The notes under the pieces: model-generated
What the model saw: only the letters and a program-made list of their open reading frames with translations
What the model was told of the DNA's origin: nothing
Database searches by the model: none
In this document: in pieces, positions 3,301 through 61,456 of the stretch
Numbering within the stretch: the first letter of the stretch is position 1
How the letters are laid out: each line of letters begins with the position of its first letter
NCBI GenBank assembly: GCA_916610825.1
Contig: OU744446.1
Span: 12,706,538-12,770,537 of the forward strand
DNA from: Haliclystus octoradiatus
Taxonomy: Eukaryota > Cnidaria > Staurozoa > Stauromedusae > Haliclystidae
Direction of reading: 5' to 3'
DNA: 64,000 nucleotides
Position numbers and translations under genes: made by a program

Positions 3301-6300
3301 TACTCTATTCAAAATTTAACCCAAGTCAGTTTGACCTGGTACAGTAAAACCCAAGTCAATTTTATTAGCCCTCACTGTAGTGCTGCGCGGAATTGGTGGC
3401 CGGGATGGAATGAGGCTAGTGTTGGGCATTGAGGTATAAGATATAAAGCGCTATCCACATGGCCTCCCCTGTCGCCGATAGACATGCCCCACATGCCCCT
3501 GTACTTCACTCTTTCTGCAGTCACTTCGTATAGGGTTACTTTTTGGAATAGTGGGTCTTATGGAGCTAGGCTATGTAGCTAGCTGACTTCCGTCATTTTC
3601 TTGGATGGTAAACAATGGCATTGTGACGTTTTGGCAGCTTTTGAGGGGAAAATAAATCAAGCAAAAGATCAGCTGTTTTGAGTGGAGAAAGTTTTCAAAA
3701 ATTGGTTAACAACAGTTGTAATAGCTGTTACCCAAACCAACCAAGAAACAATTGTCTATGCTTGATGTAACACTACCTTTTTTAAAATTAACGGAATAAT
3801 ATTCCCGTTTCTTCGTTGTGTGAGTAACACTTTCACAAAAACACTGATCAAATTACTTGTGCTTCAAATATTTAAAAATCTTTCACGTCGAAAAACGAAT
3901 TTATGTTACATGCCAATAGTAGGCCTACAGTGTTTCAATTTTCTCAAAATTAAACCATGTCATCTAAGATAGCAAAGAAAAAAAAATTCTGAAAACTCCA
4001 TTGCCTTGTGCATTAAATTCAAAGATTTTATCCTCCAACAAATAGCCACCGTGGAGACATCTGCCTCCAATGAAAAGTCACATGTTGAGTGCTCTAGTAC
4101 TTATACCAATACTTCTATGGTGTTGGGCAGGAATCTTCTCAACGCATTGCTTGTCTGATCTCATTGTTTTCATAATTGTTTATGCCTTCGAAAGATAGAA
4201 AAAATCTGTCTTCAATATAATACTATTTTGTTCAATATAATCATAGTTTGTAGGCTACATAGTTTATACTGGTTAGGAAACATCGAAATTTTCACACCAG
4301 AGATTTTGTTATCACTTTTAGCGAATCACATGATATTTACAATGCACACATTACGCTTGAGAATTGTATAGTTGTTGAGACCGCGGCATGTTGTTGATAA
4401 ATTTATTATATCCGTTTAGTTAAAAACGTTAATGTAGTTGCATTCGAAAGTAATTTTCATATGAATGATCTGTAATATTAAATTACATACTATATTCTTT
4501 GTTGAATAAAATGCTTTGCCTTCTCAAAGTGGTTATGAAACGATAAAAAATAAAACGTAACATTGATAGGCCTATTAATAGTGCAATTCAGTAGAAGTCC
4601 CCCTTAGCCGATCTTATACAAATATGTAGTTTTGTCAAGTTGAATTATTGATCACAAAAAGGAAGTAATGAATTCAAGTCCTGTAAGGCCAATCTTTAGT
4701 AGTTTATCGTTGTATTTTATTGATCGCAAAAAATTAAGGAGTGAACTAGAAAGAAGTGAGAGCAGAGATTTTACCAAGTGTATTGCTAAATCAATGGTAG
4801 GCATATTCATGTTATTGCATACCAAAGTGAATCGATTTTCTTCATGATGTATCTTTGCATTAACTTGAAAGTATTGTAGGCCTATAATGTAGATTATCAT
4901 CTGCTCAGCTAGTTTACAGATTGTATCAGTTGTTAGATGATTAACCTTTAGTGTAGGCCCTACATAACACTATTAGAGATGATTTCGATTTAAATTTTAC
5001 AATTATGACACCACTAGACTCCACAGGCTAATCGAATAAACGTAATCGTACACCATATATATTTAATTGTTCATACTTCGTTGTTTTATTTATAATCCCC
5101 GACAGTATAATTTAATTAAATTGATAAGATCAGGAGCTGTAGAACAGACATCGTAGCATTCACCGTAGCGAGTTAGTAGTTGGTTGACAAATGACACTTT
5201 ATGCAAGCACTGATTTTCACACAGCTTTTCACAATATTAACATTGCAACATACTTCCTTTAATCTACAAAAACAAAATTGTTATAAAACAAAACATTAAT
5301 TATCTAACATTTGATTCAGTGATTAATCTTATGTAACATCTTACAGCATTTGAACATTTGATGTAAGAAATATAAGAATAAGGAAACACAGAACACCTTG
5401 AAATTGCAACATACTTCGTTGAGTGAAGTAACAACTTCACGCAAGAGAAACGGATTAAAAAACACAAAACAGTTTAAATACCTTTTCCAGCTACGTTGGT
5501 AATGTTTTTCTAGTTTATCATCTTATCCAGAAGCAAACTAATGTGATAACTTGATAAAACTATGCGAATCTGAGTTTTCTGCATGGAATAGATCCTGATT
5601 TCAATTCATTGATTCGTGAACGACTGTTACAAGTTCACTGCTTCGACATTTCTTCCTGTTTCGTGTTTTTGATTACAAAACAATATAATTAAGGCTAGGC
5701 CAACTGTTTCAAAACGATACTTGATTTCTTCCTGATCTGAAATTCAAAAACAGAGCAACTACAAAGGGAATCAATGCCAGACTTTGATTGAAATGTTTCC
5801 CGTTGTGTTCTGTTCAACCCCATAGTGAACATTGCAACATTAAACACTATTTACTGAAATCTTTATTGTAATAGACAAAATAACAGCTGCCAATATCAAT
5901 GTCAACACAAAATTATTTACAAAATGATATGCAGTAACACCTGATGCGTGAAAAAATGAAAAAGAAATCAAACACGATGTAAAAAGTAAACTACTTGTAT
6001 CGCGTGTACACACTTTCAAAGGCTTATAATATTTTATTTACTTTATGAATCAAAATGAAGCTTTCCAAAATGTTTAGATTATATAAAAAACAATTTACTG
6101 CTGTAGTTTTATAATTTTGATGTGTTTAGAAGTTACTTATTCCGATTCACCCCTGTCCCATTTCACCCCCTGTGAAGTCAGTTCATGAATGTTGAATGGC
6201 GTAATTTTCATGAACTGTCAATGAAATGTTGATAAGGTATTTATGAACCCAACTAATTTTGTACAAAAAAAAATTGGTTGAAAAATGACAAATTGATAGA

Positions 6301-9300
6301 TGAACATACAGTTTTGGAAACTCTCTTTTATATATTAAGATTGATACTAGGCTTACAATTAAATTTCTTTGTAATTCTAGGAGCAGTTGGCCTCCTTTCC
6401 TCAAATAGAGGAAATGAGTCGAGATTTGAAGCATTTCATATTCAGCGAATTGAGATATTGTTCAGACTAAGTCAATTTTTTTGTGGCTCATTCTCAAAGT
6501 CAGATATGTTGCAAAGAGTTATATTGTTGCTTCAAGATTTGGAATCAACAGAAAAGGAACTGAAAGACACAGCTATATCAATGTGCTCTCACACTAATAG
6601 TCAGGTTGGTTTGCAATGCACTTTAAAGCCTATAGGCTGCCCCCTTGTAGGGAAATTTCGATTGAAGAGAGCAACATCAAAAATTTAAAAATTCTCCTTC
6701 ACTGCAGAACTAAATTTGTTTGTTTGGCATATGAAATGTTGTTTGTATAGAAAATGAATCCATCCTTGAACATGCAATGGTTCAATAAAAAGCATTAGTA
6801 GGCCTATTTAAGCTCATTTCCTGACATGTTTATAATATTGTAATCCTTTAAAATTTACAACAATTTCAATTTTTTTTAGTTAGTCTCAAAATAATGTTAA
6901 ACATTCTTTACACTTTTAATACCTATGTGAGTAAATCGATTTTATCAAATCTTGTAAACAAACTTTTTCTTGATTCTAATATGTACAGTATTATTTTTAT
7001 AAATCTTCTTGATTTAAAAATGATGGATTTGAATCGTAGAAACGTTGTGAAATTAAAAAGCAAATATTATTGTTGATACCGACTTTTGTTTTGAAGTGTA
7101 GGCCTAGGCCTGATACTATAGTGTAACCCATTTAAGTGCAATTTCGATAAGTGAAATTCCTGCGTAAACTATTTTCTGGTATAATGTTCCTTTAACAATT
7201 TGTGCTAAACGAATATGTGCAAATCCAGAGACATGCAATTGGGATTTTAGGCTGCACTTGTACATTAGTTACAGGTTACACTGTCATTAATAGTTTTGCT
7301 TGAACATGTAATATAATTATTTGATGTGCTCAATCTTTATGTTGCATATTCTTTGTATAGCTTTAATCAATTGCGTAGCAAACTTTTTCGTTTAATTTTA
7401 ATATCCCCTATCTATCAGATGCACATCCTCATTTAGAGCTTTAATTTGGGTATAAGGGTATAAGGGCGGATTAGCTCAGATGGCAGAGCAACCGAACTTC
7501 AGATCGGATCATATCTGATCGACTGTGGTTCGAATCCCCCTAAGGTCAACTCAGCCTTGACTATATCTGAAACATCAAATGAGTACCATTTGAGGATGGC
7601 GGATGGAATGGTCCAGAGGGAATTGCATTGTGAGTAGCTGCGGCGCATCGTTGCGCATTGACAATCGAGACCTATCTGCCATGAAATCTGTTGAAATTGA
7701 TCTTCAGTGTCGCGGCTGAGATTAGTAAAGAGCGTTTAAAATCATTGCTCTCAGCGAAAAAAGCCACTCGTCTAGAAATAGAGGAGTGGTACGGGTGCCT
7801 TCGGTAGGGCGACACCGTCTACATTACTATTTACTATTAATTTGGGTATATTGTTCATTCCTCTTTTTAGATTGTGATAGCATTGTTTAAGGAAAAGAAG
7901 ACCGCTCTATCAATCGCACATCGGACTAAAACAGAAAAACAACATCTTTTGGTAGGGAAATTATTAAGCGTGGTTTTCATTTGATCCATATGTTAACCAT
8001 ATGTAAAATACAGCATCATGTCCCATGTAAAAAAACTAATGATTTCATGAACCGGTTCATGAATCTGAAATCGCCCAACGTTAACTTTCAAGAACTGTTT
8101 ATGAAAATACTCATGAACTCATGTTTATTTTACAGAGGTGCTATTTGTTTGCTTCTCTGGGTAATTTAAAATACAGCAGTGTTGTTAGGTGTAAAAATTC
8201 CTAGAATCAATTTGATCAAATTTAAGTTCGATGTCAAGCTCTGAGTTTAACAAACTTTTTATGATTGTAGTCTCTAGTTAATAGTTTCAATTATTCAACA
8301 TTGTATTTTTGTAGAGGTCTGAAGCCCAGGGCCAAACTGTTCATGAATTACTCTCGAAAGAATTGTAAAATAGTTTCCTATCTATTCCATGAACAGTTCA
8401 TTAATTAGATTGAACACAAGAATGAGGCAAAGCCTTTTCTCAACTCAAAGTTTCATGCTTTAAGCAATCATCAAATGGTAACTGAGCAACTTAAAAACAT
8501 CCAACTTTCAGTAATAGTCTGAAATCAAAAATATCTAAATTATTTGTTAGACATTCATGTTTGCTGCTCAAAGTTGCAGGCCAAGGCGATCATCAGGCAA
8601 TCTATTCAATAAAAATTATGCACTATACGTTCAGGGTACATAAGATCAGAGTAGGCCTACTATTATTTTAATTATGTTATTGTTTACTTGTTATGTTTTA
8701 AAATTTGACTAAGTAAAATTTATTTTGATGTCTACATTTTGATATTATTTCTGTTTGATTTTTTTTATTTTGTTGCTGTATGACTTGGCAGTTGAGAGGA
8801 TGGACCATTTGATGTTGTATTATTTATTGCTTTCTTCCAGGTGCCATATATACTTCAAAAGCTCTGTAGAATTGATGTATTTTGAATTTCTGAATAAGTG
8901 TGCGTGTCTTGAATGTGTTTTCAGTTAATCCGATGTAGTTTTGCCCTTCTCGGTCTTCATTTTCTGTGACTGTAGTATTATACACAATGCTCTCTTTGAT
9001 GCAGTTATTATCCATTGGGCATAATTCTTTTTTTTGGCAGTTACATAATTGGTCACGTTGGGTGTTTTCTTGTTGTTGGTTGTTGATTATTTTGTTATTG
9101 TGGCTTGCTTTTTATTATCGTCTTGTTTTTTGTACAGCTGTAGTAACTGTAATCTTTGAGTAGCAAACATGAATGTCTGATTTTTGGCTTTACATTTTAT
9201 ATTTTATATATTATTTAAAGCTCTGCTGTATAGCATTGAGCCCTATGTTCAATTAGTAAGAAAATTTACACCATATTATATAAATTATTTGTTATGGGCT

Positions 9301-24410: not shown

Positions 24411-26115
24411 TATCCAACAACTCCATACAACACCATAACAAAGAATGCGTGTCGTAATTGTTTAGATCTTATGCAATTATTTCTTTCATAGCTCTTGATT
24501 GGATTCAAATCTTATCATCAGATATCGGATAAACAATAGAGAACTGAATAGAATTGTAAAACTTGTATAAACTCATTAAAGCGTAACTACAATAGACATC
24601 GAAACACGAAATACAAAGAAAGATATTTTATTTATCGACAGATACAGGAAGAATTGATCGAAGGACGAAAAACCGTGAAGAAACAGCTAGCAGTTAAACA
24701 GGTACATCCAATCAATCATATTTGTATTTTATATCATGCAACAAATTGTCTTGTGAAATCAACTTGAGAAGGATTTCTATTATATGTATATTATCTAAAT
24801 AATGTAAAAAATTATGCTGAAGGAATTAATAGGGAATGTTAGCATTTAGAAAGATGCTGCTCTTGTTGATGCTGCAATTGGGTTTGCACATAAACACACT
24901 CAAACTTGATGACTTTTCAAACTTTGACTTCAAATCTAACTTTCAACTTTAATATAACGACACATAGATTTGATTTACGAAAGTCAATTAATAATTTATT
25001 TTATTTAGTTTAAAAAATACAATTTCCAAATTTAGAATAATTTAGCCTGGGGTGTAACCACTATTTGAAATAGATAGTTAGAAGATCCGATCTTCCATTA
25101 ATGGGATTCGATCTTAAGCTAAATGCATAAGCAACAGAAAATAATATCGGGAAAGAATATATAATATACAGTCTGAGTAGAAACGTGCACGAATATCAAA
25201 TCAATTCGACAATTCCTCATTGATAAATAGATTAACGTACGTAAAATTCTTAAAAAAAAGTAAATCCAGAAAATCCCAATGCAATCATTAATTTTGTTGT
25301 CATGACAAATAAATATGTAAATGACACAACTTGTACCCATATATAGAACTATAGTATATGTTGTTGTAATCCTATGTTTTATGACTTATGATGTTTCACA
25401 AATTGGCATGATGATGATATTCAATGTACGATGTATATTCATTTTCAAAACACTCATCTGCCTTTAATGTAAGAAAGCTACAATACTTATTTTGAAAATT
25501 TTAGCTTGTATATGTTGTTGTTGTTGTTTTATTGGTCAATATTTTAAAACTGGAAGGGCGAATAAAGGGTAAACCTACAGCCCCCACTAATTACGTACCG
25601 GTACCGCCCTTTTATTGATTATATGTGATATCATACTGCTGCATAATAATTGAAAGGAATATAACAGGAATGTCTTTTTTAGCAATGAAGAAGGATAGCT
25701 TTGGATGTAAAACTTTTTTGACCCGTGAATTGAATGGATAGCTAAATTAATATCAAGCATATTTCCAATCTTGGCATGGAATTTATTGTTTTATTTTACA
25801 TACAGGGATTTTGAAGCTCTCTATAAGACTTTTGTACCATACTTTATTTTGTTAGAAAAGAAATGCAAACAGTAAAATAATAAAAACTTTGAAGCTGATG
25901 ATGGTTTAATTGAAAACAGAGGTCACTGTCTAATGGCCTCTATTTAGCTTCTGATGGGGTTGTTCGTTTTACACTGAAGCAATTACTTTCTCAAATAGGG
26001 AGGAAAGCAAGTGGAATTTTGATTAAAAAAACCATAGTTGGTGTTCTCCTATCTCGAAAATAAGATGTTAAGGGTTGGATGATTAAATGCCTATTTTCTT
26101 CCTTGCAGTCTGACA
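24411..26115. other. Intergenic region upstream of the first P450
   Basis: No gene recognised. A strong splice acceptor (cttccttgcag) ends 6 bases before the P450 start codon at 26116, so an unlocated 5'-UTR exon probably lies in this interval. Confidence 0.45.
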
Positions 26116-27609
26116 ATGGATCTGACAGCATTCTTCGTTGCCTTGGCAATGATTCCATTGGTCTTTCTATGTATGTGGTTGTATGAGATATGGCAAATGA
26201 GAAAGACATCGCCACCAGGTCCATTTCCTCTTCCTCTTCTTGGTAATGCACTAATGCTGACATCTGAAAACATCCAAAAAAGAGTTTACGAAATATCGAA
26301 ATCGTACGGTCCAGTTATTACCCTTTGGTTATCAAATAAGCCCGTCGTCATGGTGAATACAATCGAAGCAGCCAATGAGTATCTAATACGTAAAGGCAAA
26401 TTATTCGCTGGTAGACCTCAAACATCGACAACTAAATTGTACATCCCAAAACCAGGTGGAATATTGATGGCCGATTATCACGATATCTGGCGTACAAATC
26501 GAAGATTAAGTCATGGTTATTTCAATCCAAGTGGGATCAACATTGATTTTATTACAGATATTATTAATGACGAATCAAAATATTTGATACAAAATATCGC
26601 GATTCAAAATGGCAAGCCGTTCTTTCCCAAAGTAATATATTTTGCTGTCAAACTTAACGTTATTATGAGATTGATGTTTGGCATCAGATATGAGTTAGAT
26701 GACGAAGGCTTATTATTTCTACACAGTGCCATCCAGATGGGTACAGAGAGAGGCAGAAGGCCATTAATACGCAAAATCATTGAAATGATACCATTTATAA
26801 ATTACTTTGAATTGAAAAACAAGGCAAAGGCCCGTCATTTCTTTGTTATATTAAAGGATTTCATGATAAAGAGATTTGCTGAGCAAGAGGCTACATATAA
26901 CCCGGAGGTCATTCGCCATTGGGCAGATGCTATGATTAAACATGACTTGGAGAAACCTAACGAAGATTTCAAGTACCAATGGGCTCCATGTGCATGTGAC
27001 ATATTCGTAGCTGGTGTGGATTCAAGCCATAACTCAATGCTCTGGGCAACACAATATCTTGGTTTAAACCCTGAGATACAAAATAAAGTTTATAAGGAAA
27101 TCATTTCTGTTGTTTCACCAGATGAACAAGTTAACTGCAATGAGCATATTCTAAAATTACCCTATTTGCAAGCTTTTGTTCACGAGACCCTCCGTTTAAG
27201 TTGTGTATCATCCTTTGGTCAACCTCATAAAACTCTTGTGAAAACAACACTTGATGGATATACGATGAATCCTGGTATGCTGGTCATGACAAATGTTTAT
27301 GCTCTACATCACGATGAGAAATATTGGAAAAATTCATTCGAATTCCTACCTGAGCGATTTATTGATTCTCATGGACGTTTTCATGTGCCGAATGATAGCT
27401 TTCTACCATTTTCAGCCGGAATGAGAGGCTGTGTTGGTGAAAATCTAGCAAAAATGGATTTATTTGGACTACTTGGTAATATAATCAAAACATTCGAATT
27501 TACATTCTCTGAAGGCGGTACAAAACCTATAACAGATGGAAGAAGAGAAATTTCTTGGGGAACTGATTATTTTGAAGTAGTTGCAAAAAAAAGAAGAATA
27601 AGCAAATAA
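26116..27609 (+). CDS. Cytochrome P450, CYP2-clan-like, 497 aa
   Basis: Microsomal-type haem-thiolate monooxygenase, expected to be ER-anchored and reduced by P450 reductase. Substrate unknown. The N-terminal membrane segment (about residues 4-25) is followed by the proline hinge PPGPFPLPLLGN. I-helix motif AGVDSSHNSMLWA is at about 299, the ExxR motif ETLR at about 357, PERF at about 412, and the haem signature PFSAGMRGCVG with Cys ligand at about 439. The length is normal for the family. The whole coding region is one exon, but a consensus acceptor just before the ATG suggests a 5'-UTR intron, arguing against a recent retrocopy. The I-helix has Ser-Ser where many CYP2 enzymes have Thr-Thr. 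Its closest relative in the window is the convergent gene at 29327-30796. Confidence 0.95.
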   Translation: MDLTAFFVALAMIPLVFLCMWLYEIWQMRKTSPPGPFPLPLLGNALMLTSENIQKRVYEISKSYGPVITLWLSNKPVVMVNTIEAANEYLIRKGKLFAGRPQTSTTKLYIPKPGGILMADYHDIWRTNRRLSHGYFNPSGINIDFITDIINDESKYLIQNIAIQNGKPFFPKVIYFAVKLNVIMRLMFGIRYELDDEGLLFLHSAIQMGTERGRRPLIRKIIEMIPFINYFELKNKAKARHFFVILKDFMIKRFAEQEATYNPEVIRHWADAMIKHDLEKPNEDFKYQWAPCACDIFVAGVDSSHNSMLWATQYLGLNPEIQNKVYKEIISVVSPDEQVNCNEHILKLPYLQAFVHETLRLSCVSSFGQPHKTLVKTTLDGYTMNPGMLVMTNVYALHHDEKYWKNSFEFLPERFIDSHGRFHVPNDSFLPFSAGMRGCVGENLAKMDLFGLLGNIIKTFEFTFSEGGTKPITDGRREISWGTDYFEVVAKKRRISK

Positions 27610-29326: not shown

Positions 29327-30796
29327 TTATTGCCTCTTGACTGCTACAACTTCGAAATAGGCTGGCGTCCATGATATATCTCTTCTTCCCTCATCACGAT
29401 CTGGTAAAGGTAAATTTTTTGAAAATGTAAAAACAAATTCTTTAATCATGTTACCAAGGAGACCAAATAGATCCATCTTTGCTAAATGTTCTCCTACGCA
29501 TGCTCTCATTCCAATTGAAAATGGCAACAGACTTTCATTCGGTAAATAAAATTCATTGTTGTCATTTATAAATCGTTCAGGATTGAATTGCCGAGGATTT
29601 TTCCAATATCTTTCGTCATTATGCAAAGCGTAAACATTTGTCATTACAAGCATACCGGGTTCCATTTCGTAGCCATTGAGGGTGCTCTTCCCTAGCGTCT
29701 TGTGTGGCAGACCGAATGACGTGACGCAGCTGTGACGTAATGTTTCATTAATGAAAGCCAATAAATATGGAAGCTGAGCTTTCTTAGCATAGGTTACTTG
29801 CTCATTTTCAACTACAGCCTTTTTGATATCTTCAGATAACCTCTCTTGGATTTCTGGATAGAGGGCCAAATAAACTGTTGCCCAAAGCATTGTATTGTGA
29901 CTAGAATCAACTCCGGCTATCATGATATCGATTGCGCATGGTATCCATTGGTAACGGAATTCTTTATCGGTTTCACGTTCACGCTGAATCATTGCGTCAG
30001 CCCAATGACGCTTTACATCAGAATTATACGTAGTTTCTTGTATTGAGAACTGTTTATCAAAATAATCAGAAATATTTTTAAGAGAAGCAGCGGCATTAAA
30101 ATATTTGTCTTTATAAAAAGGTAACAATCTGAGTAGGTATCTAGTAATAGATTTTCTCCCTGCATTTGTTACTACTTGAAGTGCGGTTTCAATCATTTGG
30201 AAGTCTGCACTGTCTAAATCATTTCTGATTCCAAACATTTGCTGGAATACAACATTCATTTTTGCTAATAAGAACATTGATTTTGGATAAAATGGTTTGC
30301 CATTCTGATTTTCAATATTTTTAATCAACATTTTTGCTTCAGTGTTAATAACCTCTGTAATTTCTTCGATATTGATACCATTTGGATTGAAGTAGCTATG
30401 ACTAACTTTACGGTTTATTTTCCAGATGTTGGTATAATCAGAAATAAATATACCTCCAGGTTTTGGACAGTATATCTTTGTCCCTTTGGTTTGTGGCCTT
30501 CCAGCAAATGTTTTTCCTTGCTTTATAAGATAATCTTTCGCTGCTTCAATTGAATTCACCATAATTACAGGACGACTTGAAAACCAAATTGTAATCACAT
30601 CTCCATATTTTCTAGATATTTCATAAACAGTTTTTTGCATGTTTTCTTCCTTGAATAGAAGGATATTACCTATAAATGGTAATGGAAAAGGTCCTGGTGG
30701 TAATTTATTTCGTTGAGATTGCTTTTGGATAAACCACGAAATTAAAAAAACCAAAGGGATGACTGCCAAGGCAACGAAGAAAGCGGTTGTGTCCAT
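29327..30796 (-). CDS. Cytochrome P450, CYP2-clan-like, 489 aa
   Basis: Paralogue of the gene at 26116, convergent to it. It has an N-terminal anchor (TAFFVALAVIPLVFLISWF), the hinge PPGPFPLPFIGN, I-helix AGVDSSHNTMLWA, ExxR as ETLR, PERF, and a haem signature PFSIGMRACVG with Cys at about 433. Complete with no frame breaks. As in its paralogue, a splice acceptor (tctttccag on the minus strand) lies a few bases before the ATG, so both share a 5'-UTR intron and arose by DNA-level duplication. The intact convergent pair plus one decayed copy indicate a small local P450 cluster. Substrate unknown. Confidence 0.95.
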   Translation of the reverse strand: MDTTAFFVALAVIPLVFLISWFIQKQSQRNKLPPGPFPLPFIGNILLFKEENMQKTVYEISRKYGDVITIWFSSRPVIMVNSIEAAKDYLIKQGKTFAGRPQTKGTKIYCPKPGGIFISDYTNIWKINRKVSHSYFNPNGINIEEITEVINTEAKMLIKNIENQNGKPFYPKSMFLLAKMNVVFQQMFGIRNDLDSADFQMIETALQVVTNAGRKSITRYLLRLLPFYKDKYFNAAASLKNISDYFDKQFSIQETTYNSDVKRHWADAMIQRERETDKEFRYQWIPCAIDIMIAGVDSSHNTMLWATVYLALYPEIQERLSEDIKKAVVENEQVTYAKKAQLPYLLAFINETLRHSCVTSFGLPHKTLGKSTLNGYEMEPGMLVMTNVYALHNDERYWKNPRQFNPERFINDNNEFYLPNESLLPFSIGMRACVGEHLAKMDLFGLLGNMIKEFVFTFSKNLPLPDRDEGRRDISWTPAYFEVVAVKRQ

Positions 30797-30990
30797 AATT
30801 CCCTGGAAAGAGAAAAAAATTGTAAAATGTTATATTTAGTTGGATATATATGTCACAGTCGGCATAGATAGGTCCCAATTTTGATCATAAGCTTTCACGT
30901 TCGATATATTTTGAATTATAATCTATGCGGCGCTTCACGTTATGAAATGAGGTACTGTATTTGTACTTATAAACCTCATTCTCCATTGTC

Positions 30991-31259: not shown

Positions 31260-33800
31260 TATTTACAAAAAGGGGTCGGATGTATATGATGAAAATATTT
31301 GGATCACTCTTAACATAGTCAATATTCGGAAAATCTGTGATAATATGTACATGTTGTTTAGAACTTGAAAATAATTGAAAGGCTCGAATCAGAATTATGG
31401 AACTTAAATGGAATTAGGTATGCAAGCAATATAGTATAACACGACACAATGGCCAAGTTCTGCTAGACGAAACTTATGAACTTGGAATAAAAAGAAACGA
31501 CAGAATAGTATGACTAGGTCTTCATATATACAGCCTCTACTCCGGCCAGTAGAGTATATACAATTAAATCAAGGAAATCGAGGTCGAGAGATAATTGTGT
31601 ATACCTCATTATCAATCAAGAGGGGCTATATAGGGGCTGAAAACCGTAAAACAGCAAATATTTGAGCCAAAAACCGAAATCCGGGTATTGTCCTTTAATT
31701 TGCACAAGGTCTGATAGACATGTAATTAACATTTCTGAAACATTTTTAGGTGAAAGCACCGCTATTGGAATTTCTAAGGAAGTTGCAGCACATAAGGAAG
31801 GAAAATAGGGCATATATGATGTAACTGATTCATGGTATGACTTTTTTCATTCCTGCAAAGGACGCTGAACGGTATAAAACTTGACTTTGCGATTAAGGTG
31901 TTTAAGAAGGCACTAAACCATTGACTGTTTGATGATAAATCGTAATGTATGGTCGAATTATCCGAAAACGAAGGGTTAAACATTACATATTCCGCAAATC
32001 GGACTACTTCTAAAATCCAGGAGCCGGACTCAAAATCACCATCACTCAAAAGCTTGAGAAAAAAAACTAAAAATCCGCGAACAGTTTTTCGGCCCTTTTC
32101 CTCTGACCTCCCCATGAATCAAGTCCGTAACAAAAACACAGCCACCTTATCAACTCTGCCAACTCTGCCCAATCATCACAATTTATAATATTCGATCACT
32201 ATTATATAGTACTAGAAAAAAAGGCTACCTCCGGCAGCTTTTTCTAGCTCCTGCGGAGGGCCTTGTGGACCTTCGGCCCAATTGTTGTTACTGTTGAGAA
32301 GCTGTATTTAATTTTCTGCACTAAGTCATGGTTTCGCTCTATGCATATAGTATGGATTTCAGAATCGAAAATCTATTGCTAACATGAATGGAATATAATA
32401 AAGATTGACTCTTACAATTTAAGCGTTATTATAAGATTTCAAAAGCGTTATTCGATTTCAGTTAGTTAATATCATGTTGAAAAATATTTTGCCAAAGTTA
32501 AAATGACTGCAATGTTACAATGATTACTGAAGCGTTTTGGAAAATTTTAAACTAAACATGGTACGGATTTCAGTTACACTATTTGCCATTTCAATATTTA
32601 AGCAGTAACAACATTGAACAGAACGTTAAAAATTATGTTTCAAATCCATGCAGTTATCAAAATGAGTAATGTTTATTAAAGTCAAAGAAGCATTGAAGAC
32701 ATAAATGTATGTAGCATATACTGTATATGTGTACACGCTTAAAACTAAAATTTCATAATCCCCCCGTATTCCAGTACTATAAATTATAATAGCATTTCAC
32801 AGTTTAAAAGAAATCCACCCATACCAGCATAGTAGTAGCTCATGATTTGAAAATGAAAATATGAATTATAGTAAGATTTTGTCAAATATTCTCAATAGAA
32901 ATTCAGTTGCAGTTTGATATTAATGATTTACTACAGATATCTAACTCAATATGAACGATATAGAAAATACGTCATACATATAAAAGCCATAAGAAAATTG
33001 AAACGTAATTATCAAAAGCTAATGAAAATGTGTTCATTAAAATGTCATAATCCTTCCATACAAGTCCTGCTTCTATACTGATTATATTTCATGATTTAGA
33101 AGTACTAATTAAAGTAAAATTCTGCCAAGACTGTATCCTCAAGACTTCCATTGCAGTTTGATATCAATAATCTTTACTGCAGATATCTCTAACCATGTGA
33201 AAGATTTTAAAAAAATATTTCGATACCGTCTTATTCTAAAAGATTTATTCATCGCCATAAAAATCCATAAAATGTCGTAAAGAATGAAAATTGAGACTTA
33301 ATTATTAAAAGCTATAATGAAAGTGTGTTCATTATAATGTCATATTCCTTCCATACCAGTACTATGTACTGATAATATTTCATGATTTAAAAGTGTTCAT
33401 TAAAGTAAGATTTTGCCAAACGATTTTCAAGTGTTCCAACTGCAGTTTGATATTAATAAATCTTTACTGTAGATATCGAATTCAATATGAACTATATAAA
33501 GAAATACGTCAATACCGTCTTATCAAAAGAATACGTTAATATTGTTTTATCGAAACAAATTTCTTCATTGGATAGCTAGATGAAGCAATAATACACATAT
33601 TACATTCATCTTCATAATTATATCCCCATGTGATAGCAGTGGAAAGGAAAACATTTGGTTGATCTGGTTTCATTTCGGTTATGACCTTTTGAATAGGCTT
33701 TAAATTTTAAAAGCTGGCTGATGAATGTCAAAGCACATTTTATACAGAGACATTGTTGGACTAAGAAATACTATTGAGTGGACCATGGTGCAGATAATAT
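31260..33800. other. Intergenic, no gene supported
   Basis: AT-rich. The overlapping frames at 31616-32188 show no recognisable domain, though the stretch at 31949-32188 (Ser/Lys/Arg-rich) is the best candidate for an unrecognised exon. Diffuse direct repeats occur at 32800-33540 (recurring CATACCAG...TACT, GCAGTTTGATATTAAT and ACTGCAGATATC blocks), suggesting three old copies of a unit of about 270-300 bp. Confidence 0.4.
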
Positions 33801-33882
33801 AGGGCTCTATGTCTGCATTTGACAGAGTGGTAAATAATAATAATATATGGCGAAAGAGTCAAAGAATACACATTAATTCTTA

Positions 33883-33928
33883 ACTGTTACTTCAAGTTTC
33901 ACACATTTCACTGCGATCTTCAGACAGA
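33883..33928 (-). ncRNA. Minimal type-I hammerhead ribozyme motif, left arm of first foldback
   Basis: On the minus strand: helix I CTGT/ACAG, core CTGAAGA, helix II CGC/GTG (one G-U wobble) closed by U and U, GAAAC, a 5-nt loop, then GTA as cleavage triplet. Confidence 0.55.
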
Positions 33929-33957
33929 TTTTTTACTCAATCACTTGAGTAAAAAAT

Positions 33958-34001
33958 CTGTCTGAAGATCGCAGTGAAATGCGTGAAACTTGAAGTAACA
34001 G
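33958..34001 (+). ncRNA. Minimal type-I hammerhead ribozyme motif, unit 1
   Basis: Helix I CTGT (33958-33961) pairs with ACAG (33998-34001). The core CTGAAGA is at 33962-33968. Helix II is CGC...GCG flanked by U and U. GAAAC is at 33985-33989. Helix III is two pairs closed by the loop TTGAA. Predicted cleavage follows GTA at 33997. The U-U at the base of helix II is non-consensus (usually G-C) but is conserved in every copy here. Confidence 0.62.
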
Positions 34002-34174
34002 TTGAGAATGTGTATTCTTTGACTCTTTCGCCATATATTATTATTATTAAATTATAATATATATAAAGTAATAATATTAGTATTAGATATTATCTAATAG
34101 CAGTAAAACAGTGCTCAATGTCAGTTGACAGAGCTGTAAATATAATAAAGAAGTCAAAGACTACACATTTTGAT

Positions 34175-34217
34175 ACTGTTACTTAAAGTTTCACGCTTTA
34201 TGCGATCCTCAGACAGT
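34175..34217 (-). ncRNA. Minimal type-I hammerhead ribozyme motif, left arm of second foldback
   Basis: Minus-strand mirror of the unit at 34247-34289: helix I ACTGT/ACAGT, core CTGAGGA, helix II CGC/GCG, GAAAC, GTA. Confidence 0.55.
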
Positions 34218-34246
34218 TAGTTTTAACAGTTAGTTGATTAGTTTTA

Positions 34247-34289
34247 ACTGTCTGAGGATCGCATAAAGCGTGAAACTTTAAGTAACAGT
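34247..34289 (+). ncRNA. Minimal type-I hammerhead ribozyme motif, unit 2
   Basis: Helix I ACTGT (34247-34251) pairs with ACAGT (34285-34289). Core CTGAGGA is at 34252-34258. Helix II is CGC ATAAA GCG. GAAAC is at 34272-34276. Loop TTTAA is closed by two pairs of helix III. Predicted cleavage follows GTA at 34284, 287 nt after the unit-1 site. Confidence 0.65.
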
Positions 34290-34431
34290 ATCAAAATGTG
34301 TAGTCTTTGACTTCTTTATTATAGTAATAATATTAGAAATATTAAAACTTAATATTGGCAATTGAATAGTGCTCAATGCTAGTGAATAGTGAATAGCAAA
34401 GTGTAAATAATAATAATTGTAGTTATTATTT

Positions 34432-34475
34432 GTTGTCTGATGATCGTTTAATAACGTGAAACTTGGAGTTACAAC
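34432..34475 (+). ncRNA. Minimal type-I hammerhead ribozyme motif, unit 3
   Basis: Helix I GTTGT (34432-34436) pairs with ACAAC (34471-34475). Core CTGATGA is at 34437-34443. Helix II is CGTT TAAT AACG. GAAAC is at 34458-34462. The cleavage triplet is GTT (34468-34470). Helices I and II both differ in sequence from units 1 and 2 yet still pair, which is strong internal evidence for structure. This unit has no matching left arm. Confidence 0.68.
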
Positions 34476-34519
34476 CAAAGAATGTGTCTTTCCTGACCTT
34501 CTCATTATTATTATTATTG

Positions 34520-35580
34520 TTGTTTTATATAATATATCTATTTACTGATGGTACAGATGGGTATCGAAATAATTATATGAAAAGAAAAGAATAAGAAAAC
34601 TACTACATATTGATAATTGATGTTGTATGACGTGTCTTGAACTATGGGTGTATCATAGAAAACAGTTTACCTAAAAATACAATTTTATCAAATCAGACGC
34701 AGGATACTGTATAATAAAAGACTTATCGAAGAAATCCATTAAGCAACAAGATTATAATCACTATAGTCACTATATATACTCACCAGCAATTAAACTGATA
34801 ACTGATTTTATCTTTCATATATATATCTCAGTATTATGATCAACTTCAAGAGTTCAAAACAGGTATTGGATTAGGTAAACTATGCCGGATTCAAAGCAGT
34901 ATCTTCAATCATAGTCAATAGAATAGAAATTCAGTTTCTATTCTATTGTGACTAAGTCATTGACTATGCTTCAATGCATACAAGTTTAATTGCAAAGATT
35001 TCCTGTAGTTCAGCAGAAATACCAATGGCAAAGCGATGGACAGTAGAATCAATTTCAATACACTTCAATATACATGAATGTATATCGATGGCTCTGATTT
35101 TCAGGCCTGGTCGTGGCCTTATTATAGTCCAGTAAATCCATATCACAGAAAATCCTGATAACAGATCCAATTCAATTTCACGATCGGATTCGAAATCCCG
35201 AACATGCGGCCTGAAATCATGTTTGTTTGGTTAGCCGCTTGTGCGCTTACCCACGTGCTTAATAATTCTGCTTACAAGGCTGAATCATCAGCGCTGCCGT
35301 TACTATACAATTTCTTTCAGCCTTTGAAATTCGAAGACCGACTCAGGACTGACCGTTTGTTAGATTCAAAGAATCATTGCTAAAAGAAGAAAATGGTATG
35401 GTGTTATTGTGTTCTTGTGTGTCTGGTTAGGTTAGTTATTGGCCTACTGATGTGATCATTTTCGCCAGGTCTATTGATGATTGATGGTCAGCCGGCCAAA
35501 CTCATGGAGTTCAAAGACATCCAACTCTAATTCAAAATGATGTTAATCATGTTAACCTTTTCATCTTCATAGCACACAGA
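34520..35580. other. Intergenic, no gene seen
   Basis: AT-rich with a short imperfect foldback near 34915-34970 (GACTATG/TAGTCAATG and AGAATAGAAATTC). No coding region or classified repeat. Confidence 0.4.

Positions 35581-37223: not shown

Positions 37224-61456
<24,233 letters not shown>

What the first reader, a model, noticed from the sequence alone, without database searches (positions are those of the whole stretch)
33841..34510. Tandem array of foldback units carrying minimal type-I hammerhead ribozymes
Three consecutive units each contain a complete hammerhead core (CTGANGA, helix II, GAAAC, a 5-nt loop, GTA or GTT) with helix I restored by different sequences: CTGT/ACAG, ACTGT/ACAGT, GTTGT/ACAAC. 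Helix II also changes while still pairing (CGC/GCG, CGTT/AACG). Predicted cleavage sites are 287 and 186 nt apart. Known Penelope-like elements and metazoan retrozymes carry such minimal hammerheads in tandem units, so this could be a source of small circular RNAs. Caution: the base of helix II is U-U in all copies rather than the usual G-C.
Basis: partly seen in the sequence, partly recalled or inferred. Interest (0 to 1): 0.9.

Follow-up and report, generated by a model that had tools for sequence, protein, structure and literature searches.

The report
Ribozyme-bearing inverted Penelope retrotransposon ends
These three DNA units are short, mostly head-to-head inserts of the ends of Penelope-like retrotransposons, each carrying a small hammerhead-type RNA motif, and their regular shape may record how these unusual elements jump.

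Summary
The hammerhead motifs are real, but this is not a tandem retrozyme array. The window holds five, not three: units 1 and 2 are near-perfect palindromes. A covariance model built without the window's subfamilies finds all five (E 3e-13 to 1.6e-9); Rfam misses them. The core pattern occurs 5,338 times in this 262-Mb genome against 83 in the reversed control, and its helices covary. It follows the endonuclease ORF of Penelope-like elements (PLEs) in 29 of 30 cases examined; one such ORF models as a telomerase-like reverse transcriptase. Each unit is an insertion of inverted PLE ends. The three are different subfamilies, and unit 2 sits inside unit 3 between 13-bp target duplications. All 25 copies measured have one long and one short outer end, with 24 distinct centres. 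I infer reverse transcription from both sides of a break, starting at two different internal sites. Against this, inner arm lengths match within 2 nt in 20 of 25, which fold-back copying also predicts. No sign of self-cleavage was found in the genome; activity is untested. New variant of a known kind.

The parts
33793..34048 (.). Unit 1 (subfamily B): inverted pair of PLE ends, long end left, short end right; ends approximate
   Evidence: Inverted repeats 42 and 65 nt; alignment to the B copy of L013
33883..33928 (-). Minimal type-I hammerhead, left arm of unit 1
   Evidence: Model R1 E 4.4e-10; descriptor
33957..34002 (+). Minimal type-I hammerhead, right arm of unit 1; predicted cleavage 33997/33998
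   Evidence: Model R1 E 3.9e-11; descriptor
34081..34323 (.). Unit 2 (subfamily A): complete inverted insertion, long end left, short end right
   Evidence: 79-nt arms, 100%; fixed ends shared with other A copies
34068..34080 (.). Target duplication of unit 2, left copy
   Evidence: Letters printed
34324..34336 (.). Target duplication of unit 2, right copy
   Evidence: Letters printed
34175..34217 (-). Minimal type-I hammerhead, left arm of unit 2
   Evidence: Model R1 E 3e-13
34247..34289 (+). Minimal type-I hammerhead, right arm of unit 2; predicted cleavage 34284/34285
   Evidence: Model R1 E 3e-13
34067..34520 (.). Unit 3 (subfamily C), interrupted by unit 2; left arm holds only the outer tail, right arm holds the hammerhead; ends approximate
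   Evidence: Comparison with the C copy of L048
34432..34475 (+). Minimal type-I hammerhead of unit 3; predicted cleavage 34470/34471
   Evidence: Model R1 E 1.6e-9; same core in L048
8440..8479 (-). Decayed hammerhead relic
   Evidence: Model R1 E 6.1e-6
8560..8601 (-). Decayed hammerhead relic
   Evidence: Model R1 E 6.2e-6
61076..61119 (+). Decayed hammerhead relic
   Evidence: Model R1 E 0.0019

Best explanation
Each unit is a very short insertion made by the machinery of a Penelope-like element (PLE): two copies of the element's leader/pLTR region, which contains a minimal type-I hammerhead, placed head-to-head with their RNA 3' sides outward (in unit 3 the left copy stops before the hammerhead). 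Steps: (1) shown: PLEs with long open ORFs exist in this genome, with a hammerhead just 3' of the endonuclease and, in L033/L034, also before the ORF. (2) Published for an anole PLE: the enzyme cuts and extends both DNA strands and starts reverse transcription inside the RNA at two nearby sites. (3) Inferred: on one side of the break a cDNA starts at the far site (long end, +101 from the cleavage position in subfamily A), on the other at the near site (short end, +39); both run back through the hammerhead and stop 6-28 nt beyond its core, where I suppose the leader RNA starts. (4) Inferred: the two cDNA ends, identical in sequence, pair with each other at short self-complementary stretches and are joined, so each insertion gets its own centre with near-equal arms. 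(5) Inferred: in the finished palindromes the hammerhead is mostly a passenger; any function is in the parent PLE RNA. The confidence is for the whole; I put the identity (PLE-end insertion with a true hammerhead) near 0.9 and the two-sided mechanism near 0.55, lowered.
For: Hammerhead: 5,338 core matches v 83 reversed; core-only anchors 144 v 0.25 by chance, helix I fully paired in 136 and helix II in 138; helix II 191 of 219 cells paired, 2,000 shuffles at most 185; model R1. PLE: hammerhead within 400 nt of the endonuclease match in 29 of 30 and in 3 of 4 more distant PLEs; telomerase-like fold; GIY-YIG in a relative. Architecture: 31 of 38 neighbouring endonuclease pairs head-to-head; 792 short head-to-head hammerhead pairs v 2 in control, and only 90 with a longer centre; one long and one short end in 16 of 16 A and 9 of 9 D copies; target duplications; 24 distinct centres in 25 copies. 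In ten ORF-bearing pairs whose two arms could both be mapped, arm lengths differ (for example 1654/543, 285/941 nt) and nearly fill the gap. Both-strand extension and two start sites in an anole PLE: PMC11167929.
Against: In the short units the inner arm lengths agree within 2 nt in 20 of 25 (A: 13 of 16, shuffled mean 4.8, none of 2,000 as high; D: 7 of 9, shuffled 5.3, 240 of 2,000), as fold-back copying would also give. No PLE with exactly the A, B or C leader was found; L061 is only a near relative. Of 33 short pairs a crude motif test called 30 long/short, 2 short/short (another subfamily, L028 and L055) and 1 long/long (L005, a chance motif in the flank). The query ORF itself has no Pfam match. 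Folded alone, the three hammerhead segments do not give the hammerhead as minimum-energy fold. Rfam sees nothing over its cut-off. The transcript start near the hammerhead is not observed.
Confidence: 0.7

Rival explanations
1. Fold-back: the PLE origin and hammerhead are as above, but the inverted pair arises because one strand (cDNA or antisense RNA) folds back and primes copying of itself, as proposed for rotifer Penelope elements.
For: Proposed by Arkhipova and colleagues from palindromes at head-to-head junctions (PMC3846280, passages). Inner arms of equal length within a copy but not between copies are what a hairpin gives.
Against: Simple copying of one arm from the other should give equal outer ends, yet the ends are one long and one short in 25 of 25. 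Ten mapped ORF-bearing pairs have clearly unequal arms that nearly fill the gap, which would need loops of up to about 1.1 kb.
Confidence: 0.3
2. Retrozyme: the units are tandem copies of a non-autonomous element that spreads through hammerhead-cut circular RNA.
For: Type-I hammerheads in short AT-rich repeats with three motifs in the same direction. Tandem hammerhead-like arrays exist elsewhere in the genome (70 forward and 398 reverse matches v 8 and 4 in control, many from one array).
Against: Three different subfamilies, nested, with a target duplication inside the supposed array; inverted order dominates; no pile-up of arm ends at the cleavage site; palindromic transcripts should hide the motif.
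Confidence: 0.05
3. An ordinary foldback or MITE-type DNA transposon in which a hammerhead-like string occurs by chance.
For: Long inverted repeats, many copies, AT-rich targets with duplications.
Against: Helices covary between subfamilies; the same motif sits beside PLE endonucleases; outer ends are unequal and centres are new in nearly every copy.
Confidence: 0.02

Closest known systems
Endonuclease-containing Penelope elements of the rotifer Adineta vaga, such as Pen2a_Av (PMC3846280; passages read)
   Same: Head-to-head inverted pLTRs, a short 'tail' on one of the inverted pLTRs, target duplications of 8-10 bp, palindromes at the inverted junction, AT-rich targets
   Different: There the pairs mostly flank an ORF or captured DNA and the tail is 31 bp; here most units are leader-only, in about 790 copies, with a 62-nt tail on exactly one side and a hammerhead in each arm; no hammerhead is mentioned in that text (0 occurrences)
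Poseidon/PAc of the green anole (PMC11167929; parts 1-2 of 4 read)
   Same: Minimal hammerhead at the pLTR/ORF start, internal reverse-transcription start at two sites that define the tail, cutting and extension of both strands, AT-rich targets
   Different: Studied in vitro as a tandem element; inverted leader-only inserts with a hammerhead in each arm are not described in the parts read
Metazoan non-LTR retrozymes (PMC7229834; part 1 of 6 and passages read)
   Same: Small AT-rich non-coding repeats with type-I hammerheads and target duplications; PLEs suggested as helpers (PMC7761336, passages)
   Different: Retrozymes are direct tandem repeats of one unit with mostly canonical hammerheads and known circular RNAs; these are inverted pairs with minimal hammerheads
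Dispersed minimal type-I hammerheads of animal genomes (PMC7761336, passages; original 2014 and 2017 papers not held)
   Same: Thousands of minimal motifs scattered in non-coding DNA, some in PLE pLTRs
   Different: Here most short ones can be placed in a defined inverted insertion with fixed outer ends

Membership tests
Minimal type-I hammerhead ribozyme | Conserved core (CUGANGA, GAAAC, GUH) with helices I and II supported by covariation | tested here: met
   One measure (number of further pair types, 9 v shuffled 10.6) does not exceed chance; the 14 rows were chosen mostly from scans that asked for helices
Minimal type-I hammerhead ribozyme | G-C (or other standard) pair at the base of helix II | tested here: not met
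   U-U in all five window motifs; T-T in 42 of 73 genome sequences, standard in 27 of 73 (G-C 9, A-T 8, T-A 8, G-T 2)
Minimal type-I hammerhead ribozyme | Very short helix III | tested here: met
   About three pairs and a short loop; the pairs never vary, so no covariation support
Minimal type-I hammerhead ribozyme | Self-cleavage | not testable with these tools
   No RNA or bench data; no cleavage-site pile-up in the genome
Endonuclease-containing Penelope-like element (parent of the units) | Telomerase-like reverse transcriptase | tested here: met
Endonuclease-containing Penelope-like element (parent of the units) | GIY-YIG endonuclease at the C-terminus | tested here: inconclusive
   No Pfam match in the ORF itself; a 48%-identical Solemya protein has GIY-YIG at 26.2 bits (cut-off 22.6) in a stretch aligned to our C-terminal part
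Endonuclease-containing Penelope-like element (parent of the units) | Hammerhead-bearing pLTR before and after the ORF, with inverted partial copy | tested here: met
   One locus examined, C8 14.096-14.102 Mb (L033, L034): hammerheads 2,454 nt apart around an ORF of over 750 codons, plus an inverted copy
Endonuclease-containing Penelope-like element (the units themselves) | Inverted pLTRs with a tail on one side and target duplication | tested here: met
   25 of 25 A and D copies; duplications clear in 6 of 16 A copies, undecidable in 10 within simple repeats
Endonuclease-containing Penelope-like element (the units themselves) | RT-endonuclease ORF | tested here: not met
   The window units carry no such ORF; at most non-autonomous or leader-only copies
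Metazoan non-LTR retrozyme | Direct tandem repeats of one unit | tested here: not met
   Different subfamilies, nested and inverted
Metazoan non-LTR retrozyme | Circular RNA intermediate | not testable with these tools
   No RNA data
MITE / foldback DNA transposon | Two equal terminal inverted repeats and an inherited centre | tested here: not met
   Unequal ends in 25 of 25; 24 distinct centres in 25 copies

The most novel reading that the evidence does not exclude
The thousands of 'dispersed minimal hammerheads' of animal genomes are in large part the footprints of one kind of event: a PLE protein complex reverse-transcribes the same 5' leader RNA from both ends of one double-strand break, starting at a different internal site on each side, and the two cDNAs are joined in the middle. 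The strict long-plus-short ends would then record an asymmetric two-sided target-primed reverse transcription, and the hammerhead sits just where cleavage would decide whether a leader can act as template.
Probability: 0.4. Interest if true: 0.72.

Novelty: new variant of a known kind. Interest (0 to 1): 0.52.

Why it matters
How Penelope-like elements insert, why their copies are head-to-head, and why they keep a hammerhead are open: passages of PMC7761336 call the role of the minimal hammerheads a mystery, and PMC3846280 leaves the replication cycle to future work. This genome offers a recent and very regular natural data set: about 790 tiny inserts with fixed outer ends and a fresh join in the middle. 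It makes two-sided priming against fold-back directly testable, offers an origin for dispersed minimal hammerheads, and shows that Rfam's hammerhead models miss this class here.

Tried and rejected
Rfam: no hammerhead at gathering score, at E up to 5 or 10; the microRNA matches reflect the long hairpins. Whole-genome RF00163: 7 hits, best 30.9 bits, none over the cut-off of 34, none here; 73 of 24,130 candidates scored.

Idea that reverse transcription ran off self-cleaved RNA, so that arm ends pile up at the cleavage site. A few hammerhead-less palindromes suggested it (L026, L054, L058, L048). A genome pattern for small palindromes without hammerhead gave 64 (control 0). Of the 50 places listed, the lengths expected if both arms end at the site (50 or 52 nt by subfamily) occur 3 and 1 times; the peak is 45 nt (8 of 50), which is ambiguous. 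Not supported. A scan of held loci was swamped by AT repeats and is not used.

Arm identity as a test of fold-back: uninformative, because copies of subfamily A hardly differ; that script stopped with an error before subfamily D. The arm comparison included junction and flank and is discarded. The first long/short tests used loose motifs; one search uses subfamily-specific ones.

Pfam on the ORF and on the 30 aligned relatives gave nothing useful, nor did sequence search of solved structures. GIY-YIG is absent from the structure lists, which the reverse-transcriptase domain fills; this says nothing against it.

Literature: the searches (open-licence papers only), as far as their listings and the passages read go, gave no description of high-copy leader-only inverted PLE inserts with hammerheads or of a strict long-plus-short rule. 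The 2014 and 2017 papers on PLE hammerheads are not held and are known to me only from citations and recall.

Full report
What is there. The stretch 33.79-34.52 kb holds three units. Units 1 and 2 are near-perfect palindromes, so their hammerhead strings lie on both strands: five motifs in all, the only hits of a strict type-I descriptor in the window, against 0.12 expected per 64 kb. Unit 3 has one.

Are they hammerheads? Rfam gives none, and its type-I model has no hit over cut-off in the whole genome either. I therefore tested the structure itself. Anchoring on the core alone, without asking for helices, gives 144 places (44 distinct) in 347.8 kb of held DNA against 0.25 in shuffles. Helix I is paired over 4 bp in 136 of 144 and helix II over 3 bp in 138 of 144; among the 44 distinct sequences the numbers are 37 and 38 (the loci were largely fetched for this family and some overlap). 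In the whole genome the core pattern occurs 5,338 times against 83 for the reversed pattern. The 100 places listed there give 73 distinct sequences; 50 of 73 have all three inner helix II pairs, and 191 of 219 cells pair, more than in any of 2,000 re-dealings (mean 176, highest 185). In an alignment of 14 hammerheads without subfamilies A-D, 94.8% of cells pair, 6 pairs and 17 cells change on both sides (shuffles 3.2 and 5.5), and sliding the partners by 1-3 columns lowers pairing to 24-56%; the number of further pair types (9) is not above shuffles (10.6), helix III never varies, and the basal helix II pair fails in 6 of 14. I chose those 14 rows mostly from scans that asked for helices, so one search is the cleaner test. 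A covariance model from the 14 finds the five window motifs at E 3e-13 to 1.6e-9 and decayed relics at 8.4-8.6 and 61.1 kb. So this is a real, covarying minimal hammerhead. Whether it cuts is unknown; the U-U in the window copies makes weak activity likely, and the isolated segments do not fold into it at minimum energy.

What carries them. Locus L013 has the motif just beyond a fragment that I recognised as a Penelope-type endonuclease. A genome search with that fragment scored 150 matches of 3,139 candidates, many in long open frames, several over 700 codons. In 29 of the 30 fetched matches a complete core lies within 400 nt downstream: 27 at 128-134 nt, one at 49 and one at 256; L039 has none. 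Three of four ends of more distant PLEs (58-63% endonuclease identity) also have one; L062 has none in the 201 nt read. Between five such families the 91 nt before the hammerhead are at 0.58-0.66 identity in eight of ten pairs (shuffled 0.58-0.60; the other two 0.70 and 0.77), while the hammerhead keeps 0.65-1.00. The ORF of L034 has no Pfam match, but its model (mean pLDDT 86.9) matches telomerases first; PLE reverse transcriptases are described as telomerase-like (PMC11167929). A Solemya protein 48% identical over 572 residues has a GIY-YIG match above the Pfam cut-off in the aligned C-terminal part. In the C8 locus, hammerheads lie before and after a long ORF, 2,454 nt apart, with an inverted partial copy beside them: the direct-plus-inverted pLTR layout of classical Penelope. 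I did not find a PLE with exactly the leader of A, B or C; L061 is the nearest.

How the units are built. Copies have fixed outer ends. In subfamily A the short end lies 39 nt and the long end 101 nt from the cleavage position, a 62-nt tail. With subfamily-specific motifs, 16 of 16 A and 9 of 9 D copies have one long and one short end. Target duplications are clear in 6 of 16 A copies, the window's among them; the other 10 lie in TA or TAA repeats where nothing can be said. The arms keep 6-28 nt upstream of the core. There are 15 distinct centres in 16 A copies and 9 in 9 D copies, often with a few extra bases. Within a copy the two arm lengths agree within 2 nt in 20 of 25, for A far more than by chance (13 of 16, shuffled 4.8), for D not clearly (7 of 9, shuffled 5.3). 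Genome-wide there are 792 head-to-head pairs with a 20-50-nt centre (reverse strand 777; controls 2 and 1) and 90 with an 82-112-nt centre (controls 1 and 2). In held loci larger, mostly ORF-bearing pairs of 1.1-2.3 kb form a second class (14 of 48 head-to-head gaps, a few counted twice in overlapping loci). Of 12 distinct large pairs, both arms could be mapped in ten; their lengths differ (for example 1654/543, 1581/712, 285/941) and nearly fill the gap. Among endonuclease matches less than 6 kb apart, 31 of 38 neighbours are head-to-head, 5 in tandem, 2 tail-to-tail. Among hammerhead anchors less than 400 nt apart the orders are 34 head-to-head, 16 tail-to-tail, 8 in tandem; only head-to-head (26) and two tandem neighbours share the same core.

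Window anatomy. Unit 2 (A) is inserted into the long end of unit 3 (C) with the duplication GTAATAATATTAG; the uninterrupted C copy in L048 runs through that point. Unit 1 (B) lies just to the left. Three subfamilies, three insertions: the 287/186-nt spacing has no meaning. True tandem arrays of hammerhead-like strings exist elsewhere in the genome but not here.

Mechanism. The anole PLE enzyme cuts and extends both strands and starts reverse transcription inside the RNA at two adjacent sites that define the tail (PMC11167929, parts 1-2). If it starts at the far site on one side of the break and at the near site on the other, the outer ends, the head-to-head order and the target duplication follow. 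Unequal arms in the large pairs fit two separate cDNAs. Equal arms in the short units fit fold-back (PMC3846280) as well; under the two-sided model they need the added assumption that two identical cDNA ends pair symmetrically. What fold-back does not explain is why the outer ends always differ. The uniform stop 6-28 nt beyond the core would fit run-off at an RNA start there; that start is my inference. Finished palindromes should be poor ribozymes: units 1 and 2 fold into hairpins of -161.6 and -133.6 kcal/mol. I looked for arm ends at the cleavage site as a mark of self-cleavage and did not find them in excess, in line with the report that unprocessed RNA is the main template of the anole element.

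Known or new. Minimal hammerheads in PLEs, inverted pLTRs and one-sided tails are known. Not found in the open papers searched are the high-copy leader-only inverted inserts with a hammerhead in each arm, the strict one-long-one-short rule, and the link of dispersed minimal hammerheads to two-sided priming.

Noticed in passing
G000 C1:38055465-38064635 and possibly beyond, - strand (outside the window): A long array of the hammerhead-like pattern CTGANGA..GAAAC repeating about every 90 nt.
   Followed up: partly
G000 C1:567478-568150, - strand (outside the window): Five near-identical hammerhead cores, two of the spacings 106 nt: a small tandem array.
   Followed up: no
G000 C1:306229-306266 (-) and the flank of the A copy in L012: Hammerhead-like strings of the canonical kind CTGATGAGTCC..GGACGAAA, different from the PLE type.
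   Followed up: no
L004, L024, L044 and a variant in L026: A second type-I-like motif, AGCAGTACTGATGAAGGCTAATGGCCAGAAAC.., with 7-bp helix I and A-A at the helix II base, ending in TA repeats; perhaps another retroelement family.
   Followed up: no
L014 and L015: Two subfamily-A copies on different contigs share the same centre, so a palindrome may sometimes be copied whole or recur by microhomology.
   Followed up: no
L028 about 3412-3591: A D-type unit with two - strand hammerheads 72 nt apart, one with a shortened tail, as if by template jumping.
   Followed up: no
window 26083-27609 (+) and 29327-30829 (-): Two intron-free open frames; the second matches cytochrome P450s (PF00067), best relatives about 30% identical, so the species is distant from sequenced animals. 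The first looks like a paralogue by eye.
   Followed up: partly
window 39360-40417 and 56424-58405 (+): Open frames that look by eye (recall only, no search) like remains of a polinton/adintovirus-type capsid gene and of a DNA-transposon protein.
   Followed up: no
window about 9.1-9.25 kb, 9.8-9.95 kb (+) and 60.94-61.12 kb (-): Further decayed PLE tail pieces (GCTCTG..TTGAGCACT type), so old copies are spread through the window.
   Followed up: partly
flanks of A and D copies in L003, L004, L010, L016, L021, L026: Many insertions lie inside long TAA or TA microsatellites, which PLE insertion may favour or even seed.
   Followed up: no
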